The translations under genes and the position numbers were made by a program. Of a DNA stretch of 64,000 bases, positions 44,498 through 60,590 are shown in pieces. The notes below the pieces were generated by a model. That model searched no databases, was not told the origin of the DNA, and saw only the letters and a list, made by a program, of their open reading frames with translations. This DNA is from Bifiguratus adelaidae. Taxonomy: Eukaryota; Mucoromycota; Endogonomycetes; Endogonales. Numbering within the stretch: position 1 is the first letter of the stretch; the number at the start of each line of letters is the position of its first letter. The stretch spans positions 1 through 64,000 of the forward strand of contig MVBO01000036.1 in the NCBI GenBank assembly GCA_002261195.1. Direction: 5' to 3'.

Positions 44498-46883
44498 CTA
44501 TTCTACAAGGTGGATTGGGTACGCTTTGTTCGGTTGGTTGGGCGAGGGTAGTGACCAATGGTCTTGACCAGTGCAGGTTTTTTGAGAGCAAGCAAAGCTG
44601 AGAGCACGATTAGAGGAGTAATGCATGGTAGGACACAACGTACTCTTATCGAGAGCTAGTTCAATCTTGCAACGAGTGCGAATCATGGCAAGCAAAGGCC
44701 ATGTTGCTTGCTCTCCTTTCAGGATCCAGTAGTCGAGCGATCGGCTTGTAGGATTGGCTAGCATCGTTTGTACATCCTATGATGGGATACGGTCAATGGT
44801 CGCGGAACAATAAATGAACAAAGACCTACAGCGAAATTCAGACTCGGTGTGATGGTAATGTTGCCAGAGATGGGCTCGCTGATGAGACCTTGTAGAAATC
44901 TCGGTAGTGCACGCATTTGATCGAGCTGATCGACATACATGTCAGCATTGTAGCACATACGCATGTAGGTGCTCACCTGCCACATGCGACATCGGAATTC
45001 CGCCGACAGGACATGGCTTAATCGCATCAGCACACTCTCGCTTTGACCGGGGGTATTGCGCCTCAAGAATGGTACAACGTAGGGATTGGCTTGGGAAACG
45101 ATAAAGTGATTCACATTGAAAAGCTCTGCAAGCCGTGAGAGCGATGTATCGCTTTCAGCCGACGTAGCCTCTGTCCATTTGTTCCATGTAATTGCTGTCA
45201 AGGCAACGTCAGCTTATCGAATAGCTACAGGGTGACAACATACTTGAAGGACTCCATTGGACAATCCGACCAGTCTTGTCTTTGGCCAGCAATTCGACAG
45301 AATCATATAGACCGAGTGACGCGGTAGAGGCACATGCCGCGCTCCGAATAAGCTTGTCCAGCAGTGAGTATTGCGGTCACTTTGCGAAATTCGAGCTCAA
45401 TACTTACCACATTCGGTGCAGTGAGGTAATTCAAGAATTGAGGCACTTCAAATTTTCGCGTCGAGGAGACGGTAATGTTGAGAATGCGATTGGTCCTAGC
45501 ATAGGCTTCCTATACGGTACCAGAGTTTGTAAGCTGACCGAAAAAATGCATAAAGCCACCTACTTCGAATGTCAAATCTCCAACATTGGATTTCACACAA
45601 TCCTCGAGCACTCGAATATCCATGAGATAGCCTGCAAAAGACAAGATGAGTGTCCTGTCGCAGTCAAAGACATCATCCACAACGTGCCATGCTTTAGAAA
45701 TCGAGCTATCTTCCTTTTGGCTGTTCCTGTAGTGCCTTTCCTTGAAAATGCCGTCAGATTGATACCATCGGACTGGAATATGTGCTGCAAGGTGAATCAG
45801 CAAGAGCCTTTTGGAAGTACCGGTTCACTTTACTCACGGGGAGCTCGTCATCGGTATGTATACAGATCAGGGCGGCAATGAGGGAACCGACAGCACTGCC
45901 GCAGATGATTCGCGGGAGCAGGCCATGTTCTTGGAGCGTCTTGACAACTCCCAAATGATACAATCCTGCATGCATGAGTTTAGCTGGGGTCTAGATGGTG
46001 GAGTACAGTCTTACCAAAGGTGGCACCTCCGTAGAGCACCAATGCAGAACATCCAAAACTTTGCCTGGTGTTGCTGAAAAAATCCAACTTTTGCTGTTTC
46101 GAAATATCAGGAAAGTCGATTTCGGCAATATAGCGAATCTGAGCCACCACTTCGTCCATGTACTCTTCAATCAAATGCTTTGTGCTACTCTTGGTTAGAA
46201 GAATGCTTGTCGGCAAGTCGCGGTTGTCTTACCCTAAAGCGGACCGACTAAAGAGTCGTACATCGCACATGCCGCCAAGATTTCGCAGCAATCCTGATGA
46301 ACAACAGGATGAGTCATGACCATATCAGAGGCACACAATGCACCAATCTCATCAAGTCAACCTTACCTGAACGAAGATAGTATATCAGGGCCAATGCATC
46401 GCCACTCTCACGAACTGCGCGAAGATGCAACAGTCGGCCATGGATAAGCTTGTAATCATACCATTTGCTGGCCGCATTCGCCTTCCATAGATCGTTGCCT
46501 ATCGCAGGTTAGCCGACACTGTTGTAAGCAGACGCTATTATACATTACCTAGATATCTAAAATGCCATGCCATGAGAGGCAAGAATAAGAGGCAAAGCCT
46601 AAGCTCAAACATCCTCTACTCACGTATCAAGTACTCTAGACTTGCTCTGCCACTCTTCATAGCTAGTGGAAGCGTCTATGGCTTCCCGTAGTTTATCCTC
46701 TGGTCGTTTTCGCTGTAATGACGTCCATGCTCTCTATACCATAACCATGAGCTCGATGAAGGAATGCTCAACACATCAGATACTTGCATGTCCCCAGTAC
46801 TTGCCCACTTCAAGGAACAGGCAGACAATAGCCGTCAAGAGATAAGTCACCGTGTCAGCTGCACCTCGCAACTTCACAGCCAT
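44498..46883 (-). CDS. Patatin-like TGL-family protein with altered catalytic residues
   Basis: Resembles the DUF3336/patatin triacylglycerol lipases (TGL3/4/5, SDP1). Blocks: [10 protein letters not shown]-like N-terminal helix, [27 protein letters not shown], oxyanion loop [25 protein letters not shown], then [47 protein letters not shown] and [21 protein letters not shown] are also family blocks. The nucleophile motif GxSxG reads GSAVG, with Ala in place of Ser. The block that usually holds the catalytic Asp-Gly reads [10 protein letters not shown]. The oxyanion loop is intact. Hydrolase activity is therefore doubtful. Start 46883 is inferred; the first intron phase is uncertain. Many exons. 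Confidence 0.82.
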
Positions 46884-46903
46884 TGTTCCATGGTGAATAT
46901 CCG
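46884..46903. promoter_or_regulatory. 20-bp divergent gap, TGL-like/RsmH-like
   Basis: The shortest start-to-start gap in the window, if both start codons are right. A later start for the TGL-like gene would widen it. Confidence 0.35.
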
Positions 46904-48248
46904 ATGTTGGCCAAGCATACGCCTGTGCTCTTGAACGAAGTCTTGTCGTGCTTGAAGCCTCGACATGCTGAGGTGTATTGCGATGCTACGTTTGGAGGAG
47001 GTGGATACGCCAAAGCGGTGCTTGGTAAGTGGCTCTAATGCTTGTTCACAAGGTCGCTGATGCATGTGTAGACGCATGTGAGTGTTCGGTCGTCGCGGTG
47101 GATCAGGATCCCGTAGCGTTTGCAAAGGCTTGCGAAATGTCACAGCAACCGGAGTACAGGTGGGTATAGCTGTCCATAAGCTCGGGATATAGACCTTTGC
47201 TTGTACACAGAGGCCGTTTGCATCCAATCTATGGAAGGTTCGGTGATATACATAGGCTGGTCGAGGAACAGCTCCAGCGATCGTAAGTCCGTCAGGAACG
47301 GCATGATGACACAATGCTGGCTGATGCTGCATGAGCAGGATTCATTTTGATGGCATCATGTTTGACATTGGCGTCTCTAGTGGACAGGTACGATCTAGAC
47401 ATATTGTCATCGCGAATTCAATGTTACCATGACAGATTGACTTGCCTCACCGAGGATTTTCGTACCGCTTCAATGGACCACTGGACATGCGCATGTGCGC
47501 TGGAGATATACTCAAGGAAGTAACAACCTATGATTCACAAGTGGTGATGAAAGCGGTGTTGGAGCAAGAGGAACTATTGAAACATACCATGACAGCTTTT
47601 GAGGCTGTGAACTACTATTCCGAGGACCTTTTGGCCAATATCATTTACCAGGTAAGCTCACCATCAATTCAGATCCGCAAATCTAAGTAATTCTGTCAGT
47701 ACGGGGGAGAACGCATGTCTCACAAAATAGCTCGAGCCATAGGAAAAGCTCGAACAAAGGACATGATCAGAACAACGACGGAGCTTGCGGACATAATTCA
47801 TCGTGCAGTTCCAGGTCCACGTTGGAAGCGAGGCGACGACGATCAATTGCGCAACGCCAGTGCACGGACATTTCAGGCTCTTCGGATACACGTCAATGAT
47901 GAGCTTGGGGAGCTTCAGAGGGCTCTACGCTCAACCAAACAGTTGCTGAAACCGCAAGGTCGACTCGTTGCAGTCACTTTTCATTCGCTGGAAGATAGGA
48001 TCGTCAAGGATTTCCTAAAGAAGAATGATGGGCAGGAAATATTGGAGTCGACATGTAAGCGCACAAAGACATGATTACTTGCGTTGAATCTAACAGATCG
48101 GGTTTAAGACGCACAAAACAATTGGCGATTGGTCAACAAAAAGGTGATACGTCCGACAGAAGAGGAGGTGAATTCAAACGCTCGAAGTCGGTCAGCCAAA
48201 CTACGTGCCGCGATCTTGGTGCCAAAGGAAGGAGTTACGATTGGATAG
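46904..48248 (+). CDS. RsmH/MraW (METTL15-type) rRNA (cytosine-N4) methyltransferase
   Basis: Bacterial-type enzyme that methylates C1402 N4 of 16S rRNA; the eukaryotic form acts on mitochondrial small-subunit rRNA. Start [19 protein letters not shown] at 46904, then the SAM motif [14 protein letters not shown]. Further blocks: [86 protein letters not shown], and [14 protein letters not shown]. The C-terminus is restored by an intron ending TTTAAG, giving [24 protein letters not shown]. Several spliceosomal introns exclude bacterial contamination. No clear mitochondrial presequence is visible with this start. Confidence 0.9.
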
Positions 48249-48342
48249 GCTGCGAATATGTCTTTATACCCTTTTCGTTATCGCATACACCGCAAAATAT
48301 GTTCAGTCGCATTGTGATTCCAACACTTGTACAATACTTTAA

Positions 48343-48366
48343 TTACACTGGCTGTAGAATAATGTA
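48343..48366. repeat. Left 24-bp direct repeat of the accessory island
   Basis: Begins TTACACTGGC and ends AATAATGTA. It matches 55642-55665 in the same orientation at 23 of 24 positions (T/C at position 7). On the minus strand it reads YIILQPV and a stop, the same as the end of the small gene at 55642-55898; the mismatch changes a Pro codon CCG to CCA. It lies 94 bp after the RsmH stop. Confidence 0.7.
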
Positions 48367-48376
48367 GATTATTCAG

Positions 48377-48819
48377 TTGACACTGTCCTGGCCGCCGCTT
48401 CCCGTGTCCGCACCCAGTCTTCTGGTGTTTCAACGAGTGGTCATACAGACTCGCCTTCGAACGGTTGAAACAAAGTATCCTGAAGCATTCAGTAGTCACG
48501 CAGGCACTCAGGTGTATCACGGAGCGCAGAATTATAAGTTAGAAGAATTGGAGGAGAGACTAATCGCTACGTGCAACGTTTCGATGAACGTCAACTCTGA
48601 ATGAAAGACGGATGTCTCTTAGGGCAAGCACTCATCGCGAGATTGTTCTATCCGCTTCCCATTCATCATGAAATTCGCAGCAGTTACGAGGCATACATAT
48701 ATGGCACTGCACAACCTCCATGGCATTTTGCCGTTGAGTTGCCGGAGAACGTATGGTTGGACGTTGCCAGTGGTTCCCTAGTTGCCATAATTCAGCTTAG
48801 TTGCTATTCGCTTCTCTAA
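48377..48819 (+). other. Two short open frames at the left end of the island
   Basis: Frames 48377-48604 (ending KYPEAFSSHAGTQVYHG, then LEELEERLIATCN) and 48601-48819 (YEAYIYGTAQPPWHFAVELPE) are adjacent and in different frames. They look like protein-coding remnants by composition, but I recognise no family, start or splice pattern. They may be the debris of an element gene. Confidence 0.25.
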
Positions 48820-49780
48820 CTTACAGTGATCTTGTTTAATCTCCAGGCGTTGTCCCAGTGTTACAGTATGCCGAGCAACAATAAAACGCCACGGACAAAT
48901 GTATTTGACATGAATGAAGAGGAAACAATACCTTCTTGTCCGATCGCTTCCTAGCCAGCCAGTCGCATAGCCTTTCCTTTGTTCTTATTATCGAATGTAG
49001 GAAATTTCGTACGTTCTAGGAGCTGCACAGCTGACTCATCGCGAACTCATATCACAATACGCAACGATTCCTTTGCGAACCTTCTGCGCCTTGATCGTCT
49101 ACGCAAGTCTGAGTGCTCTGAATTAGGGAACAGATTCAGGGTGAAGTGAGCGTGAAAGATCACTTGCAGATCGTACTTTGATGTTTTAGCTTTCTTTGAA
49201 AGCTTCGAGTGGCGTCGTTAGGGGATTGCAATGATTTTATGCAATGGAACTAAAGCCATTCAATCGCTGCCTCATTGTCGTCAACGTCTGAAGAGCGTTG
49301 CAGTGGGCTCCTCGGAGATGCTGCAACCTGCTGAATAATCTCTATTCATGCATGCTGGCGAATAGCGAGCGAACCACGGCGGATGCCATAGCGAAGTGCC
49401 GATCTCTTAGCCAAGGGTAATCGTCCCGGCGGTATACCCTATTCGGAAAATGGTTGTCTCTCCCATTGGGCGAGCATTGGAGGCGTAAATTTGAAAACCT
49501 TCCAAATATCATGCGGCGTCCAAGATTATCAGAGGACCCAAGCTTTACATGACAGGTAATTATCAATTCGAGCTGCTTCCTCGGAACAGCAATACAAAGA
49601 TATAAATGTAGGGCTTTTTCTCTCTTTCATTTAACCCGCGTCCCTCAGCATTCAACCTTGGTCTAATCTAGTCATCTCCGTTATCATATCTCAAGATATC
49701 AAAGTCTCATCCCTCATTCCATCAATTGTCAACCTCATATATCATTATATACTCCTTCATCTTCACTTCCCAATCCCAAA
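48820..49780. other. Non-coding stretch before the reductase gene
   Basis: About 960 bp with no convincing frame. Its last ~180 bp are promoter-like: a TATAAA box at 49601 followed by CT-rich sequence up to the ATG at 49781. Confidence 0.4.
49601..49606 (+). promoter_or_regulatory. TATA-like box for the reductase gene
   Basis: TATAAA 180 bp upstream of ATG 49781, followed by a CT-rich tract (CTTTTTCTCTCTTTC). The pattern is common in filamentous ascomycete promoters. Confidence 0.4.
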
Positions 49781-50897
49781 ATGCCCTCCATCCTCCTCAC
49801 GGGCGCCAACAGCTTCGTCGCTGCACACATCCTCGACCAGCTCATCCGCGCCGGACACCAAGTCACTGGCTCCGTGCGCAGCGCCTCTAAAGGCAAGCAA
49901 ATCCTCGACCGGCATCCCGAATACGCAGGCCATCTGGACTTCGTCATCGTAGAGGATTATGCGGCCGAAGGCGTCTGGGACGAGGTCTTCAAAAGCCATG
50001 ACTTTGACTACATAATCCACACTGCGGCGCCCTTGCTGGACAACCCAGCGAATACCGATTTCGATAGGGACTTTTTGCGGCCGAGCGTCGAGGGGTAAGT
50101 GCCATTCATTATTCGTCTCCCTCATTCCACTCTAATCATGGATGAAAATACTAATCTGATGGCTCGACAGAAACACGCAACTCCTCCGCTCCGCCCAAGC
50201 GCACGCACCAAACCTCAAATCCATCGCCGTAACCGGCTCCATCAACAGCATGACAACGGGCCAAGACGTCAGCACGCGCACATTCACATCCGCCTCCTGG
50301 TTGCCCCTCACCATTGCCGACGCCCGCAAAGCCCAGGACCCGTATGTCTCCTACTGCGTATCCAAAGCCGAAGCCGAGAAAGCCATCTGGTCGTTCATCT
50401 CCTCCTCCAAACCACACTTCTCTGTCTCCGTGCTACTTCCCGCACTGATCTTCGGCCCGCCCATCCAGCCGCTGACGAGTCTCAAGAATCTGAACTATTC
50501 GAGCAACGTGTTTTACTCCCTTTTTAACGGAAGCACTGACGTTGTGCCGTTAACAAGTTTCGGGAGCTACATCGATGTGAGGGACTTGGCGGACGCGCAT
50601 ATTAGGAGTTTGACGACGCCAGCCGTTGCAAACGCGCGCTTCTTGATAGGCGGGAAGAAGTACAGCTCCTTATTGTCCGTCACAGTGTTGCGCTCTCTCC
50701 CGGAATTTCAAACCCCTGAGATGAAGGCCCGCTTGCCGAAGGATCCGGAAGTGCCGGAGGTGCCTATGCAGCTACATCTCGGGGATGTCGAGGAATGGAA
50801 TAGTAAGCTCGGAATGAAGTTGAGGACGGCGGAAGAAACGTTCGGTGATGCTGCGAGGAGGTTTTTAGAGTTGGAGGCTAAGCTGGGAAGGAACTGA
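49781..50897 (+). CDS. NAD(P)-dependent reductase, extended SDR (GRE2/DFR-like)
   Basis: Rossmann-fold reductase of the dihydroflavonol reductase/methylglyoxal reductase group, about 346 aa. MPSILLTGANSFVAAHILDQL is the nucleotide-binding motif. DYIIHTAAPLLDNP, a serine in TGSINS, and the catalytic YCVSK (YxxxK) follow; VLLPALIFGPPIQP and YIDVRDLADAH are family blocks. Two exons (49781-50094, 50171-50897) with a 76-bp intron. Strong C/G bias at third positions sets it apart from backbone genes. The substrate is unknown; such enzymes reduce aldehydes or ketones. It converges with the FAD oxidoreductase gene. Confidence 0.88.
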
Positions 50898-51696
50898 GGT
50901 GCTGGGAGGTTATTGGGGATGGGACAACAGTAGTGTAAATCGTAACACGGAATGCAGGAAAGGAGAGCATACAGTGTATATGATAGGTTGAATGTGCATG
51001 CATACGGAAACCGCACGAGCGCAAACTACCTAAAGAAGCCTGTGTGCTCGCAGCTTCGCCATCGCCGCCGCGCTCACCCTCATCTTCCCCTACGAACCGA
51101 CAATCGGACGCGGTCCTCGCTTCACCACCGCCAAGTCCACGGGCAGCGCCCGTTGAAGTTAATAATGACGACCATATACATCAGAGGCCCATCACGTAGC
51201 CATGCGGTGCAGCGCGCAGAGTCTTGACCGCACTTGCTTTTAGGCAGTGGCTGAGAGAGTGTGAGGGTTACTTGCGTGTATTGGTTGGGAATATCTCTCA
51301 TCTTATGGTATATCATGTTCTAGTGAAATCATGCTGACTCGTTTCGCTAGTCGTGCGGTGTGGAAGTGGGAATGCGAGGGAGTGAGTGAGATTGCATATA
51401 TTCGTACGATATGCGATGCAGCCATGGGACTTGGTTTTGGATCTGGAGTGGTGCCGTCAGGGTCGGGTTGGTCACTTGGATGATGCTTTTATGGATCGGC
51501 GGGGAATTGGTTTAAATATGTCTTCATGAGACAGCTGGATGATATACCTCTACGGTGCGCAAGGCACAATTTGAAAGCAAAGAATATGAGATTACATACT
51601 GCAACTCACACCTAAGCTCAATGACCTGAATGGGCTGATGCCTCTACACAGCATCATGTTTCCATAGCTATCGAGCATGGCGTGTTTCTTCTTGTT
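50898..51696. other. 799-bp convergent gap inside the island
   Basis: Between the stops of the reductase (plus) and the FAD oxidoreductase (minus). No gene, repeat or RNA was recognised. Confidence 0.4.
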
Positions 51697-52950
51697 TTAT
51701 TCGGTTTTGTTATATATATTATTGTACGTCGCCAAAGCCTCCCTTCTCAACTCTACTGGATCCTGCCCGACAAACCTATTTACATCCACACTCTGCCTCA
51801 CGCTCTCATCCACAGCGCTCCCCGCCATCATATCCGCAACCAACCTCGCGCATCCGCCGGCATGCGTGATCCACACCCCTGATGCAACCCAAAGCCCCTG
51901 CACATCCCTTACCGGTCCCGCAAGCGGCAGCCCGTCGGGTGTCACAGCAAAGACGCCATTGAACGGCTCGATCTTCCTTCCATCCGCATCGACGTCGAAA
52001 GCTTTCCTGGTATCATCAGGAAAGAGAGTCATGGCCTTGCGAATGACGGAGTCAAAACTCGGCTCCCAAGCAGCTATGGCGGACGCAGGGAGAGACTCGA
52101 CGTCTAAAGCGATGGGGGCATGGTCGTATGACCCAAAGCCATCGAACGAGCCGTGATCGCGCGCATACACGTGCCGTTCCGGCCAGCGGACGAACGGGCT
52201 CGCGCGTGCGCTTTTCGGCCGTTCGGGGCAATGCACGTATGGATGCGCGACGGGGACGATAGGGAGCTCGATCCCTAGTGGGCTGAGGAGTTTCCGGGTC
52301 CAGATGTTGGTCGCGAGGATGAGTGTATCGGCGGTGAGGGAGCCAAGGGAGGTTGCGAGGCCGGTGATGCGATTGTTGTCTGTGAGCAGTGAGATGGCTG
52401 AGGCATCGAGGAATAACACGCCCTGCTCTCTGGCGCGGCGGCGGTAGTGGTCTACAATGGTGCCTGGATTCGCGGTCCCGTCTTGCGGGAAGTACAGGGC
52501 CTGGGATGCGGACTCCGCCTTGTGCCACATGGGCGCCAGCTCCGCCGCTTCCGCAGAGGTCAGTATCTTCGCGGGCAAGTCCGCATCTTGAGCGAGCTGA
52601 AATCTGCGGTGGAGCGTGGAGATGCCGTCTGGAGAGGATGCGATTTCTAGGCCGCCGACGGAGTCGAACCCGCCGGTAATTTTAAGATATGCGGAGACGG
52701 ATTCCTTGGCCAGTTTCGTGAGTGAAGGGAGCTCATTCAGCTGCCCGACAAAGCCGGGAGCGTGTCCTGTGGAGCCTTGGAGACAGGTCGAGTGGAGGGT
52801 ATGGTCGAGGAGGACGATTTGGGAGGTTGAGGATTCGCTGATGTAGGCTGCGAGAGCGGAGCCAACGATCCCGGCGCCGAGGATGATCGTTCGGTGATGG
52901 CGTGATGAATCTCTGAGTCGCGTGAAAAGAGCTTGGGCTTCGGAGTCCAT
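51697..52950 (-). CDS. FAD-dependent oxidoreductase (DAO/dimethylglycine-oxidase-like)
   Basis: Single exon, 417 aa. The FAD-binding motif is TIILGAGIVGSALAAYI, followed by STGHAPGFVGQLN, typical of dimethylglycine/sarcosine oxidase-like proteins. Later blocks: TADTLILATNIWTRKLLSPLG, PFNGVFAVTPDGLPLAGPV and GLWVASGVWITHAGG. It lacks the C-terminal folate-binding (GCV_T) domains of full dimethylglycine oxidases, so it is a short form or a different amine oxidase. GC-rich codons and no introns contrast with the intron-dense backbone. Substrate unknown; likely an N-methylated amine or amino acid. Confidence 0.88.
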   Translation of the reverse strand: MDSEAQALFTRLRDSSRHHRTIILGAGIVGSALAAYISESSTSQIVLLDHTLHSTCLQGSTGHAPGFVGQLNELPSLTKLAKESVSAYLKITGGFDSVGGLEIASSPDGISTLHRRFQLAQDADLPAKILTSAEAAELAPMWHKAESASQALYFPQDGTANPGTIVDHYRRRAREQGVLFLDASAISLLTDNNRITGLATSLGSLTADTLILATNIWTRKLLSPLGIELPIVPVAHPYVHCPERPKSARASPFVRWPERHVYARDHGSFDGFGSYDHAPIALDVESLPASAIAAWEPSFDSVIRKAMTLFPDDTRKAFDVDADGRKIEPFNGVFAVTPDGLPLAGPVRDVQGLWVASGVWITHAGGCARLVADMMAGSAVDESVRQSVDVNRFVGQDPVELRREALATYNNIYNKTE

Positions 52951-54335
52951 TTTAGAGGATGTATGCGTCGATGATCGTAGATAGACAGTTTTTGCGAAGA
53001 AGAGGTCAGAAAAACCTAATCAACATCGTTTAGCGGATCTATGAGGGGTGATCTTCGTGATACAAAGACGATGAAATTAATCCGCTCGGACTGCCTAGTG
53101 GAAGCACGTGTCTGTGAAATCCGGGAGAGAACATCCAAGCTTTATAACTTGGGAATGGGTACTTCAGGAACAATTACTCTCCGCTCGCTTCATCAGCTTC
53201 GAAACAACGCAGATCTACTTCCGCACATCTGACGTCGAGCAACGTGGAGAGGGGTCATCCAGTTTCACAGTAAAAGATAACATAGGTTATCTGAATCCAA
53301 GGGCCTGGCGCGACATGCGCATGAAAAATATCAAGCTGGTGTCAGGCTCTTCTGACCAGCTGCCTGCTTATTCCGGTCGCGCACATCGATATCAATCGCT
53401 TTCGAAAGACCAATATTTGGCCTGTCTCTGGCAAAGAGAATTTTGCTCACGGCCTGCTTTGGTACATCGAACGGGGAAATCCCAGGGAAATTTCCTACGA
53501 CATAGATAGAGCACCGACTTGGGTCCTGGGCCTCTGTGGATTGGCCAATAATGGTTAAGCATACACAGCGTAAGGATCCAGAATACAAGGAGTATACGTA
53601 TCTGTCTGTTTTAGATGCCTCCACAGAGCCCGCTGGCCACGATCCTCCGGGACAAGTGAAGTCGGGCCTTTTTTGCTCTTGTCCGGTATATTGATCCCTT
53701 ACAAGGGCGGCAAGATGATTCGACGCCAAAATCTACACTCTCAAGTGGTCTATCGATACAAATACTCTCTCTGCCGTCTGGATGTACCGGATATGAAACT
53801 GTGATATAATGCTGACAGGATCCTGCCGGAGCTCATAGGAGCTGATGAGGATGCCTTTTTACTGCACCTTAAGGAAAGCTTTGCTATCGTTTTGAGAAAA
53901 GTCGAAAACGAAAAAGAAACCTATGTCCGTATTGGCTCTGTTGTTTGGCCAGGTGGCCTAAAATCAGGCGCAGATCGACCACATGAGAGCCTATTAGGAT
54001 AATTTGAGCAAAATCTTTGTTCGCCCACTTTGGCGACGAATCAGGTCCAATAAGGAATCGTGCCCTAACTCGACCATAAGGAATATTCAGTTCAATACGA
54101 GGTGGTTTATCGCACTATCGCATTGGAGGACTTGGACAATTAGTGCTGCGCCACGCGGTGGCGCTCTTGGCCAGCCGCGATGAAATGTAATCGGCTGAAG
54201 CTCGCGAACATTATCTTTCCAAAGTGCAATTTATCCCTTCATCCTGTTAATCAATGTCTATAATGATATGGTATATCCAGGGTTCAATCCATATACATAG
54301 ATCCTTGGTTTTATGAAGGATGCCACCTTCGACTT
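52951..54335. other. Non-coding stretch with FAD-gene promoter
   Basis: About 1.4 kb with no supported gene. On the minus strand TATAAA at 53141-53146 lies ~190 bp upstream of the FAD oxidoreductase ATG and may be its core promoter. The remainder is AT-rich with only short random frames. Confidence 0.4.
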
Positions 54336-55140
54336 TTGTTGGTTTGGGCACTGGATGACTTTCAAGTCTTTAATGTCGTTCTCGTGGGTCTTCCATCACC
54401 CGGCTACAGATCTGTAGCATTGAAAGACTTGAGAGATATTCGTCTTCTTGTTCTGAACGCTGGAAGAGATACTGACGAGCTCTCCTGTCACCTTACCTGT
54501 ATCTCGCTCGACGACCAACCAAGTTATGAAGTCCTTTCATACGTTTTGGGGAGATCCTGCTAAAACTCGGCCGATCATGTGCTCCGACGGCACTCCTCAA
54601 AATTACCGTAAATCTATACACTGCTCTAGGGCACCTCCGTGATACTGATTGATAACGTCCGTTATGGGCTGATGCTCTATGCATTGACCAACAAAACCTT
54701 GTTGAACGAAGCCATCAGGTGCAGATGATGACGGATATCTACACCAATGCAGATCAGGTTCTAATCTGGCTTGGAGAGAAGACGCAAGACGTCAGCGAAT
54801 TCTTCGAGTCTGTCCAAGAGGGCCGTGCCTTCTTCCCGCCAATTGAGAAGCTAAAGCAGTAAAAAGCACCGAGTCCGATGGTCGTTCATCTGCCCTTTAC
54901 AAGCAAGTCATGAACTCTTCTGTGATTGCGGACAACGCGAGACTACTAGAGGAAGGTGCAGCAAGTCTCTTCACCCACGACTGACAGCTTTGCTGCGTCA
55001 TCCATGGTTCGAGCGAAAATTTCTTTATCCAGGAAGTAGTTTAGGCTAAACGAGCGCTTGCACTCTGTGGCGACACGTCATTGTCTTGGGAATATATCGA
55101 GGAGCTTGCGTTGAATATGAAACTACAAGGTGTTATCACA
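54336..55140 (+). pseudogene. HET-domain (heterokaryon incompatibility) gene, broken
   Basis: HET domains act in fungal self/non-self recognition and cell death. Fragments in order but in different frames: IRLLVLNAG, CHLTCISLDDQPSYEVLSYV (usual SYVWG is SYVLG here); [38 protein letters not shown] and [17 protein letters not shown]; then LLRHPWFER, IQEVV, AKRALALCGDTSLSWEYIEEL. Several stops and frameshifts separate the blocks, and no open frame spans more than one. Large HET families are typical of filamentous ascomycetes and also occur in some basidiomycetes. It is a relic, not a working gene. Confidence 0.75.
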
Positions 55141-55641
55141 GGGGCGTCAGAGATCATGCAAATGGCCCTATAATTTCATTCTACTCTAAAACTTCCAGTG
55201 TACTGACTCGCGGGATCGAATCATTGCTGTTTTGGGTCTCGGCCTGTGATGTCAAGCTGGAAGATGAAGATCCTGCAGAGTTTGCGCCTAAGCCTAACTA
55301 CTATCTCAGCCCTGTTAACGTTGCAAAGCGAAACCTTACCTTGCTTGTCAATCTCGGGTGTAGTCGTCATACTTTTCGGGGGTATTGAAAGGTATCCAAT
55401 ACTTGAGCAAATTGTTCACACTTCATGATGCAAAGTCGAGTTCAATGAATAGCAATGAATCGAGTAGAATGAGAAGCGGCAAATGGTGTGAAACGGGTCA
55501 GCCATTAACGCCCGAGGAGCAGTTCCAAAATGGGAATACCTAGAAAGACCACCTTGAAACGTCACCAATATAACTTGGAACAGGGAAGAGGTTGTTGAAG
55601 CTAATCGGCTGGTCTTCCTCATCCTCGTCCATATCCGTCCC
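55141..55641. other. Non-coding right end of the island
   Basis: About 500 bp between the HET relic and the right direct repeat. Short frames only; no inverted repeat or recombinase remnant was recognised. Confidence 0.35.
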
Positions 55642-55665
55642 TTACACCGGCTGTAGAATAATGTA
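55642..55665. repeat. Right 24-bp direct repeat, within the 3' end of a small gene
   Basis: Begins TTACACCGGC and ends AATAATGTA; direct copy of 48343-48366 with one mismatch. On the minus strand it is the last seven codons and stop of the small tail-anchored protein gene. Confidence 0.7.
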
Positions 55666-55898
55666 AAATACCACCATGAGAAATGAAAAGACCAACGTGA
55701 ACAGCACCGTCTAAGGGGTAATGCTGTTAGTCCGTCAGCTTAGCGTCCACGAACCTTGGAAATGGTACAACTGTCCATTTGGTAAATGCAGGGAAGAGCC
55801 TGCTTCATCAAGCTAATTGACCGCTCGCTATTGTCATCTTCATCGTCCCTGTCCAGCCTGTAGGTATCGCTTTGCTCAAGTCGTTGATAAGCGTCCAT
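55642..55898 (-). CDS. Small tail-anchored membrane protein, 70 aa, unrecognised
   Basis: Two exons (55755-55898 and 55642-55710) joined by a 44-bp intron (GTTCGT to TTAG); 213 nt in total. Start MDAYQRLEQSDTYRLDRDDEDD, an acidic, soluble N-terminal half, then a single C-terminal hydrophobic segment (TVLFTLVFSFLMVVFYIIL) with only QPV after it. This is the layout of a tail-anchored protein of the ER or mitochondrial outer membrane. I do not recognise the family. It is divergent from CWC24 (128 bp). The right repeat of the accessory island is its 3' end. Confidence 0.6.
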
Positions 55899-55969
55899 GC
55901 TTCCGCTCACTCCACTGCCAAATCCTCAAAAGGGACTGATCACGTGACCAAGTTGGAGCCGTAAATTAA

Positions 55970-57020
<1,051 letters not shown>

Positions 57021-57141
57021 CCAATGGTGTATGTATAGACTGTGTAGATATAAGAGTTGAGCCATTGTCTGCTCTCAGCCAATCAAATGCGCTTAAAATG
57101 ACGAATAGCAGATCATCGCTCGCTCCCTCTTTGCTTACACA

Positions 57142-57891
57142 TCATGACCTTACAGACAGCTACCAATATCACCTGGCACGCCGGTGCATTCACTCGGCAG
57201 GAACGCGAACAGATTCTCGGTCAAAAGGTAGACATGTACTTGATGGACCACTGACCAGACTTGGGCTGACACTCACCTCGCTTTTCAGGGTCTCACTATA
57301 TGGTTTACTGGTCTATCTGCCTCGGGTAAATCCACGATTGCTACAGCACTAGAACAGAGCTTATTGCATGCCGGTGTGAATGCTTACCGACTGGATGGAG
57401 ACAATATTCGCTTTGGACTCAACAAAAACCTTGGATTCGGATCTGCCGATCGCGCCGAGAACATTCGTCGTATCGCCGAAGTAGCGAAATTGTTTGCTGA
57501 TTCTACGGCTATTGCGCTCACGGCGTTTATCTCTCCCTACGTGGCTGATCGAGATGCTGCTCGTCAATTGCATGTGGAAGCTGGTATTCCCTTCATTGAG
57601 GTGTTTGTGGATGCGCCTTTGGATGTCGTCGAGTCTCGGGATCCCAAGGGTCTCTACAAAAAGGCCAAGGCTGGAGAGATTAAGGAATTCACGGGTATCT
57701 CTGCTCCCTATGAAGCTCCACCCAAACCCGAAGTGCACATTCGAACGGATCAGGTGGATGTGGATGGTGCTGTCAAGGTAGGTGGACAGGCGAGAGTTGT
57801 GTTGTCATGCTAACGCGTACATTAGGTTATTCTCAGTTATCTCATAGAACAAGGCCACCTTGATGCCTTCAAGGTGCAAGCCAAACAATAG
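57142..57891 (+). CDS. MET14: MET14 adenylylsulfate (APS) kinase
   Basis: Makes PAPS from APS in sulfate assimilation. Exon 1 [21 protein letters not shown] joins [16 protein letters not shown], the P-loop. [46 protein letters not shown] and [21 protein letters not shown] are all family blocks. It ends [16 protein letters not shown]. Three exons, about 205 aa, complete. Confidence 0.96.
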
Positions 57892-57896
57892 AGAAC

Positions 57897-57902
57897 AATA
57901 AA
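57897..57902 (+). terminator. AATAAA poly(A)-like signal after MET14
   Basis: AATAAA six bases after the MET14 stop codon, 76 bp before the DSC3 start. Confidence 0.4.
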
Positions 57903-57977
57903 GAGACATCTTATAGACTTCTCTCTCCGCGGGCCTAATTTTAAGTTCCCGTTCTTAACACTACAGGATAACATGCT

Positions 57978-58915
57978 ATGGCAGAAGCCATTGCAAACCC
58001 TCTGGAGGTGCATTGTCGCTTTGGCGATGGAAGCGACGTAACGCTCACTATCTCACTCTCTTGGAATATCGCGCAAGTCAAGGAAAAAGTAAACTCAGAA
58101 GCTCTGTGCGGATGTTCACTGACACCTTGCTGTAGCTCAAGGAAACGAAACCTAGTATACGTGACAACCACCTTCGCTTGATTTACCAAGGCAGGGTCTT
58201 GTTGGATCACCAAGTGCTTAATGCATGTCAACTCGTCATTGGACCCGACTCGCCCATCTACTTTCATATCGCCGTAGCAGACGCAACGTCCGAAGCGTCC
58301 AATGTAGGTAGATCCGCTTCGGCCCATAGACCGTGCCGACGGAAGGGTACGTCGTTTGCTCACCTAGTCCATAGTCTCAGCCTCAGCTGACACCCTCGAC
58401 GGGATTCGATCGATTGCGAGAAGCCGGCTTTTCAGATGAGGACATCGCCAATCTTCGACGTCAGTTTCATCGATTTCATGGCACCTCGGGATCAGGTAAA
58501 ATAATACGAAAGCTGTGATACGCAGTGGATCCATGGACTTACCGGACATACCTTTATAGAGTCCACGGAGCAAACGAGGCGGTTAGAAGATCAGTGGATG
58601 GACAATGCGTCGGAAACCCTGCCGGATGGAAGTAAGTTGAGCAGCCAAGAAGATTGTGACTACTAAGCCTAGGGTAGCACCGCATGGTACCTATAACGAG
58701 CTCGTGTGGGGATTAATGTTGGGCTTCTTTTTGGGATTGATGACCCTGTTTTGGTTCAGAGAGCATGTCTTTTCACGCAAGCATCAATTAGGTATGAATG
58801 TCGCGGCCAGATGGAGTGGAGGCTACCGACGTCTTGCTCACTGATCTATTCCACAGGCATCATTTTCGGTCTATTAATCAATATATCGTTTGGTGTCTTG
58901 TATGTATACTACTAG
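57978..58915 (+). CDS. DSC3: DSC3-like subunit of the Golgi Dsc E3 ubiquitin ligase
   Basis: The Dsc complex acts in SREBP cleavage and Golgi membrane protein quality control in fungi. The N-terminal ubiquitin-like domain has EVHCRFGDGSDVTLTIS and HLRLIYQGRVLLDHQVL, with an intron between. The DUF2407 C-terminal half follows: GFDRLREAGFSDEDIANLRRQF, LEDQWMDNASETLPDG, YNELVWGLMLGFFLGLMTLFWFRE, and a last membrane segment IIFGLLINISFGVLYVYY. Two membrane segments and the domain order match DSC3. Several short exons, about 220 aa. Confidence 0.85.
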
Positions 58916-58974: not shown

Positions 58975-60590
58975 CTACAATTTGGCACCCATGGCTTGTC
59001 CCATCTTGACGGCTTGTCTTACACCAAGATCCAACATGATTTCCTCTGAACCACCGGGAATAGCATAAGCCCGCACCTCACGGTACAATCGCTCAATTTT
59101 TTCGGCTTGACCACCCCGTGTATAAGCGAGACCACCCCAGATTTGAGCGGCTTCCCGAGCACAATACTCAAAGGTCACCGTACATTGAGCCTTGAGAAGG
59201 GCAATAGGACCGCCTAGACGGAGAGGTCGAAGGTGTGCGGGCATCTTTTCGGTTTGATACATGAGATTCTCCATCCATCCGTGTGTGGCCTCGACTTGTC
59301 GAATCATGTGTGCGAGCTTGTTACGGATGACCGGGTGTTCAATCAGGGTCTTGCCAAAAGTCTTGCGCTTGTGGGCGTACTTGAGTGACTCCTCAACACA
59401 GATACGGGCCATGCGGTTGGCTTGAATACAAATGCCCATACGTTCGTGATTGAAATTGTGCATAATGTGCTTGAAGCCATTATTGAGCTTGCCAATCAAG
59501 TTTGATTTGGGAACCTTGACGTCCTCAAAGGTAATGTAGGCTGTACCGGATGCCCATACACCAGAGCATTGCATCTGACGGGTCGTGACACCAGGCATGG
59601 TACGCTCAATGAGGAGCAACGAGATGCCTTCACCGGTGCGGCAAGCGGTCGTGAAGAAATCGGCATATACACCGTTAGTGATCCACTTCTTCTCGCCATT
59701 CACCAACCAATAATCGCCCATATCCTTGGCCTCACATTTGAGACCAGCCACGTCACTACCAGCGTAAGGTTCAGTGATGGCCAGAGCGCAAAACTTTTCG
59801 CCGGCAATACATGGCTTGACGCACTTGTCCTTGACTTCCTTGGTAGCGAATTGAATGATGGGTGGCAATCCAATGGTCAATCCTCCGATCAAGGCCCAAA
59901 CGACGCCGACAGAGCCACATCGAGCGATTTCATCCGTGACAATGAATTCATGGAAGGCGTCAAATTGATCAAACTTGAGACCAGCGGGTAGACCATAGGT
60001 CATGTACTCTTCTGGAATGTGGCAGCCCATGGTAGCAGCAAAGACACCAGCCTTGGCGGCCTTGACAAAGACTTCCGGAGGAACCTTTTTGGCCTCATCC
60101 CACTCATGACAGTAAGGCATGATTTCCTTGTCCACAAACTCCCGAATATGCTTGCGGACGGCTCGGTGAGTATCGTTGTAGTAGGGACTACACCCATGCG
60201 TCAGTGTCCTCCATGCCATCATGATGTTTCACTCTAGCCCCGCACGCACCTGTACCAATCCTGATACCACATGGGATCCCCAAATGGAATCATGTCTCCA
60301 AACTGATCATCGGTCGCCAACATCGAGTTCTCCGACTTCTTCTCTACTTGAGCAGATCCAACCGTACCAATCTCCAAGCCAGGTCCAAACTTGGCCATGA
60401 TGGCCGCATTATGAAACTGGTCAAACTGTTTCGAAGCGTCGGTGCCTGCAGCTCTCAAGAGGACCTTCTTGCCACCTGGATGCTCATCCAAGAACCTTGT
60501 GACATCGTAGATTTTGCCGTGAATAATGAGCCAGGCTGATTCAGCAGTGTTGTGCTTTGCAACCTCGTCTACCGTGTATGTTTGAGCCAT
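58975..60590 (-). CDS. Cytochrome b5-acyl-CoA dehydrogenase fusion
   Basis: Two exons. An N-terminal cytochrome b5 domain (residues ~3-80) has heme ligands in FLDEHPGGKKV and FDQFHN. An acyl-CoA dehydrogenase domain (from ~125) has LAITEPYAGSDVAGLKCEA, YWLVNGEKKWITNG, the AidB/ACAD-like RMGICIQANRMARICVEESLKYA, KRKTFGKTLIEHPVIRNK and IWGGLAYTRGGQAEKIERLYRE-type end with IPGGSEEIMLDL. About 515 aa. The gene has only one intron. The ER- or mitochondria-related electron path is unknown; heme to FAD transfer within one chain is possible. It converges with DSC3, 59 bp apart. Confidence 0.92.

What the first reader, a model, noticed from the sequence alone, without database searches (positions are those of the whole stretch)
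48343..55665. 7.3-kb accessory island bounded by att-like 24-bp direct repeats at the 3' end of a protein gene
Seen: 24-bp direct repeats with one mismatch; the right copy is the final coding segment of a small gene, the left copy is orphaned 94 bp after RsmH. The mismatch is synonymous (CCA/CCG). Content between is gene-poor, GC-biased and intron-poor, unlike the backbone. Removing it restores a compact convergent RsmH/small-gene pair. Inference: a site-specific integration in which the element carried its own copy of the gene end, as integrases do in tRNA or protein genes of bacteria. The element class is unknown and no recombinase was found.
Basis: partly seen in the sequence, partly recalled or inferred. 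Interest (0 to 1): 0.82.

Follow-up and report, generated by a model that had tools for sequence, protein, structure and literature searches.

The report
Repeat-bounded inserted island in soil fungus
A 7.3-kb stretch of chromosome in the soil fungus Bifiguratus adelaidae lies between two copies of a 24-letter sequence found nowhere else in its genome, and was likely inserted there as one piece, possibly from an ascomycete fungus, by what would be an ordinary DNA-break repair event rather than a dedicated integration enzyme.

Summary
In detail: 48343-48366 and 55642-55665 are 24-bp direct repeats with one mismatch and sharp edges. They are the only copies in the 18.6-Mb draft genome at up to 3 mismatches, and the only non-simple pair of at least 20 nt (at most 1 mismatch) in the 119,750-base contig. 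The contig is from Bifiguratus adelaidae (Mucoromycotina). The island holds an intact reductase/epimerase gene, an intact dimethylglycine-oxidase-like gene and a decayed HET-domain gene, but no recombinase domain and no terminal inverted repeats. The 'small gene' said to be duplicated at its end has no detected homologue and stays unproven. All 78 named relatives among the 120 listed for the oxidase are Dikarya; a flanking gene matches Mucoromycota. The two intact genes are GC3 outliers. Against cross-phylum transfer: a vertical-like tree is not rejected (p-AU 0.235), and HET genes occur in other Mucoromycotina. Best reading: one inserted segment with a 24-bp target duplication from staggered-break repair. 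The att/integrase interpretation is not supported. An empty site could not be sought.

The parts
48343..48366 (.). left copy of the 24-bp direct repeat, 94 nt after the RsmH stop codon
55642..55665 (.). right copy of the 24-bp direct repeat, one mismatch to the left copy
48367..49780 (.). left stretch of the island; no Pfam match in any of six frames at E 0.1, no DNA copy found elsewhere in the genome
49781..50897 (+). intact NAD(P)-dependent epimerase/reductase gene (GRE2/ketoreductase-like, 346 aa), predicted intron 50095-50170
   Evidence: Pfam PF01370 on the first exon; PDB relatives incl. GRE2 and ketoreductases; frame and GC3 0.72
51697..52950 (-). intact FAD-dependent oxidoreductase gene (DAO, dimethylglycine-oxidase-like, 417 aa)
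   Evidence: PF01266; 1pj5 N,N-dimethylglycine oxidase; listed named relatives all Dikarya; trees; GC3 0.675
54426..54823 (+). decayed HET-domain gene, with two in-frame stops and a frame change
   Evidence: HMM match 54593-54823 with 1 TGA and 1 TAA; similarity to other HET genes of the genome in two frames
   Evidence: frames, splice signals; no Pfam match; no homologue found
47715..48248 (+). last exons of RsmH, the left host flank gene
   Evidence: PF01795 on ORF 47715-48074; sequence
58975..60222 (-). acyl-CoA dehydrogenase ORF, right host flank, used as the taxonomic marker
   Evidence: 100% identical over 97% of the query to BZG36_02702 of Bifiguratus adelaidae on a 119750-base contig; other named hits among the 120 listed are non-Dikarya apart from one plant-labelled record

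Best explanation
The segment 48367-55641 lies between two sharp-edged copies of a 24-bp sequence found nowhere else in the genome, and was likely inserted after RsmH in a Bifiguratus adelaidae ancestor as one linear piece, the repeat being predicted to be a target-site duplication made when a staggered double-strand break was filled in during end joining. Shown: the repeat, its uniqueness, its sharp edges, the content, the GC3 bias of the two intact genes, and the absence of detected recombinase domains and terminal inverted repeats. Inferred: insertion as one event, the polarity (empty site with one copy), the end-joining mechanism, and a foreign source for at least the oxidoreductase gene, whose nearest named relatives are ascomycetes (Leotiomycetes by weak to moderate support). 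Whether the HET gene decayed before or after the insertion cannot be told. The two intact genes would be the only working cargo.
For: The repeat pair is unique genome-wide and is the only non-simple pair in the whole contig. No similarity beyond shuffles continues past either edge. Two intact genes inside have GC3 4-7 sd above 15 host ORFs. The oxidoreductase has no paralogue at E 0.001 in the genome, and its 78 named relatives among the 120 listed (of 334) are all Dikarya, whereas the named hits among the 120 listed (of 6279) for a flanking gene are Mucoromycota and other non-Dikarya, apart from one plant-labelled record. The 121-row quick tree places it in a 13-row set with 5 Leotiomycetes and 7 unnamed rows (SH-aLRT 95). 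No recombinase domain in six frames. Literature passages describe fill-in of staggered breaks as a source of short duplications (PMC8355091; PMC7407515; from mammalian cells and rice, so by analogy) and a foreign segment in yeast joined by end joining (PMC3053389).
Against: No empty site was seen. A 24-nt templated filler copied from one edge would leave the same pair of repeats without any insertion. With named rows only, a tree holding all Ascomycota together and the query with Basidiomycota is not rejected (p-AU 0.235). Codon log-likelihood ratios of the island genes lie inside the host range. HET genes are reported in other Mucoromycotina (PMC5604411) and occur at 4 other places in this genome. 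Other stretches of the island have host-like GC. The break-repair paper read in passages used overhangs of 43 nt or more, longer than 24. The breakpoints of the wine-yeast foreign segment showed little or no shared sequence and no such long duplication in the passages read.
Confidence: 0.45

Rival explanations
1. Templated filler: a small break 94 nt after RsmH was repaired with a 24-nt piece copied from a site 7.3 kb away. The genes between are native or of mixed origin and were never inserted as a unit.
For: Short duplications from ectopic donors are described as a break-repair outcome (PMC7407515 passage). Sharp edges on both sides fit equally. Much of the island has host-like GC.
Against: Such pairs are otherwise absent in the 119,750-base contig, and this one falls at both ends of a stretch whose two intact genes are GC3 outliers.
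Confidence: 0.27
2. Site-specific integration by a tyrosine recombinase at a 24-bp att-like core, the element having since lost its recombinase or been mobilised in trans.
For: Long near-identical direct repeats at both ends; the right copy with the next base has 5-bp inverted ends (TTACA...TGTAA, sequence). A review notes tyrosine-recombinase transposons in Mucoromycotina (PMC10386755 passage).
Against: No recombinase domain in the island; no Phage_integrase match in the genome; no second site with the repeat; the gene said to be targeted is unproven.
Confidence: 0.08
3. Degenerate small Starship-like element: cargo left after loss of the captain.
For: Unusual cargo with direct repeats; the repeat begins TTACA, as does the reported Nebuchadnezzar target TTACA(N5)AAT (PMC12153272 passages).
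Against: The rest of that motif and TTAC(N7)A do not match at the repeats. Reported direct repeats are 2-12 bp and elements under 15 kb were filtered out. No DUF3435 in the island. No inverted terminal repeats.
Confidence: 0.03
4. Misassembly or contamination: the island is DNA of another fungus joined in by the assembler.
For: Draft assembly in 286 contigs; the oxidoreductase's named relatives are of other phyla.
Against: Both joins carry the same 24 bp, and the longest exact match between the copies is 17 bp, shorter than the word lengths usual in short-read assembly (recalled). One contig carries both flanks.
Confidence: 0.07

Closest known systems
End-joining insertions and duplications at staggered breaks (rice natural insertions, Vaughn and Bennetzen 2014, seen only as a citation inside PMC8355091 and PMC7407515)
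   Same: A short direct duplication of target sequence, no recombinase, arbitrary length and place.
   Different: Those passages speak of small duplications and of insertions of 10-1000 bp; here 7.3 kb with two intact genes lies between the copies.
Foreign region B of wine yeasts (Zygosaccharomyces bailii segment in S. cerevisiae, PMC3053389, passages read)
   Same: A multi-gene segment from another fungus set into a chromosome, with insertions attributed to nonhomologous recombination.
   Different: Region B junctions show little or no shared sequence (2-3 nt at four junctions), several sites and circular permutation; here one site and a 24-bp duplication. Foreign origin is less certain here.
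Starship elements of Pezizomycotina (PMC12153272, passages read)
   Same: Cargo between direct repeats.
   Different: No captain found, no inverted ends, 24-bp repeats, 7.3 kb only, host in Mucoromycotina.

Membership tests
Starship | captain tyrosine recombinase (DUF3435) at the 5' end | tested here: not met
   no such domain in a six-frame Pfam scan of the island; genome search also empty but without a working control
Starship | direct repeats of 2-12 bp, terminal inverted repeats in most, size typically 20-700 kb | tested here: not met
   24-bp repeats, 7.3 kb, no inverted ends; ranges from passages of PMC12153272
att-site integrative element | own site-specific recombinase | tested here: not met
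   none in the island; none in the genome by PF00589
att-site integrative element | same core at other integration sites or in a free form | tested here: not met
   only two copies in the genome, both here; free forms not testable
end-joining insertion with target duplication | direct duplication with sharp edges and no element-specific termini | tested here: met
   a templated filler would meet this too
end-joining insertion with target duplication | empty site with a single copy in relatives | not testable with these tools
   no relatives of this genome are held; metagenome scans are capped at 0 by the tool description
horizontally acquired segment from Ascomycota | gene tree nests the gene within the donor group, with support | tested here: inconclusive
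   SH-aLRT 95 in a quick tree for a set with Leotiomycetes and unnamed rows, but the AU test does not reject the alternative (p 0.235); epimerase not placed
horizontally acquired segment from Ascomycota | composition unlike the host | tested here: inconclusive
   GC3 is 4-7 sd high, but codon log-likelihood ratios lie within the host range

The most novel reading that the evidence does not exclude
A multi-gene chromosome fragment passed from a leotiomycete-like ascomycete into an early-diverging Mucoromycotina fungus and was captured whole in a staggered break, leaving a 24-bp target duplication that marks both junctions: a readable scar of how cross-phylum gene transfer enters a fungal chromosome without any mobile element.
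Probability: 0.22. Interest if true: 0.7.

Novelty: new member of a known kind. Interest (0 to 1): 0.4.

Why it matters
How foreign DNA physically enters fungal chromosomes is rarely visible because junctions decay (general knowledge). If this is one insertion with a preserved target duplication, both junctions can be read to the base, and the polarity can be tested with a single relative of Bifiguratus. If the source is an ascomycete, it would also show a gene pair of ascomycete type in an Endogonales fungus.

Tried and rejected
Tandem repeats in 46000-58000: none. tRNA target: no tRNA gene found in the window. Other copies of the island in the genome: none by DNA. Paralogues of the oxidoreductase: none at E 0.001. 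Paralogues of the epimerase's second exon: two distant ones at 34% identity. Phage_integrase and DUF3435 in the genome: none (the DUF3435 control was silent). Reverse-transcriptase matches: 17, none of them in C214. Terminal inverted repeats: best scores within shuffles at 60 and 300 bases; the 150-base score was reached by 10 of 200 shuffles and I do not count it. HET as a mark of ascomycete origin was dropped after PMC5604411. My early guess that the host was a pezizomycotine was wrong; some searches showed Bifiguratus. An argument that the HET gene decayed before the insertion was dropped on checking: three lesions in about 400 nt are not more per base than one mismatch in 24. The small gene: no homologue, though the oxidoreductase of the same contig also shows no own annotated copy among the hits listed, so absence from the annotation is weak. 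Whether relatives keep RsmH next to the right flank could not be tested.

Limits of the tree work: only the 120 best of 334 oxidoreductase hits are listed, and all 120 went into the tree (quick method, long-branch warnings). One search used 31 of the 120, one search used 30. In one search test B the ninth Leotiomycetes row, P0102, which falls elsewhere, was left out of the group. Assignment of named fungi to Leotiomycetes, other Ascomycota or Basidiomycota is recalled, not looked up.

Full report
The repeat. Positions 48343-48366 and 55642-55665 hold 24-bp direct repeats with one mismatch. The left copy starts 94 nt after the RsmH stop. With up to 3 mismatches the sequence occurs twice in 18,628,366 bases, both here. 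The window holds no other direct pair of at least 20 nt with at most one mismatch; of 10 Markov controls one held one such pair, of 20 nt. Over the whole 119,750-base contig 4 direct and 4 inverted pairs of that kind were found, and this is the only one that is not simple sequence. In six fetched stretches (59,001 bases, each searched by itself; 20,000 of these bases are from this contig, 4,000 of them overlapping the window) one AT-rich pair was found. Similarity stops at both edges, and neither inverted ends nor shared subterminal sequence stands out from shuffles.

The organism. The acyl-CoA dehydrogenase ORF at 58975-60222 is 100% identical, over 97% of its length, to BZG36_02702 of Bifiguratus adelaidae on a contig of 119750 bases, the length of the window's contig. 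The taxonomy is Mucoromycota, Mucoromycotina, Endogonales. The other named hits among the 120 listed for this gene are Mucoromycota and other non-Dikarya, apart from one plant-labelled record. No left-flank protein was searched for its relatives.

The content. Between the repeats lie an epimerase/reductase gene with one predicted intron, a 417-aa FAD oxidoreductase nearest in solved structures to dimethylglycine oxidase, and a HET-domain gene broken by two stops and a frame change. A six-frame Pfam scan at E 0.1 shows nothing further except GDP_Man_Dehyd, a relative of Epimerase, below its cut-off. No part of the island has a DNA copy found elsewhere. GC3 of the two intact genes is 0.675 and 0.72 against mean 0.539, sd 0.032 and maximum 0.596 in 15 other long ORFs of the window; some of those ORFs may be spurious. 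A codon log-likelihood ratio does not set the island genes apart.

Origin of the oxidoreductase. The five nearest, at 55-63% identity, are unnamed. A 121-row quick tree holds the query in a 13-row set with 5 Leotiomycetes and 7 unnamed rows (SH-aLRT 95) and warns of long branches. In a 32-row careful tree the query again falls among unnamed and Leotiomycetes rows, with deeper forks not starred. In a 31-row tree of named rows it sits beside 8 Leotiomycetes at 69/50, inside a weak 12-row set that also holds 3 other Ascomycota (73/85), and a tree with all Ascomycota together and the query beside Basidiomycota is not rejected (p-AU 0.235). Transfer from an ascomycete is therefore the likelier but unproven source. 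If the unnamed rows come from Mucoromycotina, the transfer would be older than this species.

HET genes. Five HET matches exist in the genome, one of them in the island. Passages of PMC5604411 report HET genes in Apophysomyces and Lichtheimia, so the HET remnant does not mark a foreign source. Its lesions do not date the insertion.

Mechanism. No recombinase domain is seen in the island, and no Phage_integrase match in the genome. The DUF3435 search was empty but its control rang nowhere. Passages read in PMC12153272 give Starship repeats of 2-12 bp, sizes of about 20-700 kb and a captain in every element; this locus fails those. Fill-in of staggered breaks gives short duplications (PMC8355091 passages, overhangs of 43 nt or more), and a foreign yeast segment is thought to have been joined by end joining (PMC3053389 passages). 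The simplest account is insertion of one segment into a staggered break with fill-in of 24 nt. The main rival, a 24-nt filler copied from a distance, cannot be excluded without an empty site.

The small gene. The predicted two-exon ORF at 55898-55642 (minus strand) has, by eye, a plausible branch point and acceptor but a weak donor. It has no Pfam match and no homologue was found. The att-like reading rests on this gene, so it is weak.

Prior work. Of 17 papers naming Bifiguratus adelaidae with 'genome' (listing only) none is titled for such an island. Passages of three papers on early-diverging fungi did not mention it. This is not proof of absence from print.

Noticed in passing
L012, L013 (C28:1-20000) and L014 (C206:134000-143999): Three of the four other HET matches lie within about 1.5-13 kb of reverse-transcriptase matches on the same contigs.
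   Followed up: partly
L014:165-1430: An ORF beginning like a sensor histidine kinase (recalled likeness) has GC3 0.64, above the 15 host ORFs of the window, and lies about 3.8 kb from a HET match.
   Followed up: no
window 53250-53950: Translations upstream of the HET remnant recall the C-terminal part of HET proteins (recalled motif; one search found no match there to other HET loci of the genome), so a C-terminal piece would precede an N-terminal piece in the same direction, as in a cluster or a circularly permuted insert.
   Followed up: no
window 48343-48347 and 55642-55646: The repeat begins TTACA, the first letters of a reported Hephaestus-family Starship target, but the rest of the motif does not match.
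   Followed up: yes
window 51697-52950: The intact oxidoreductase has no own annotated protein among the listed hits, although a neighbour on the same contig does: it may be missing from the public annotation.
   Followed up: no
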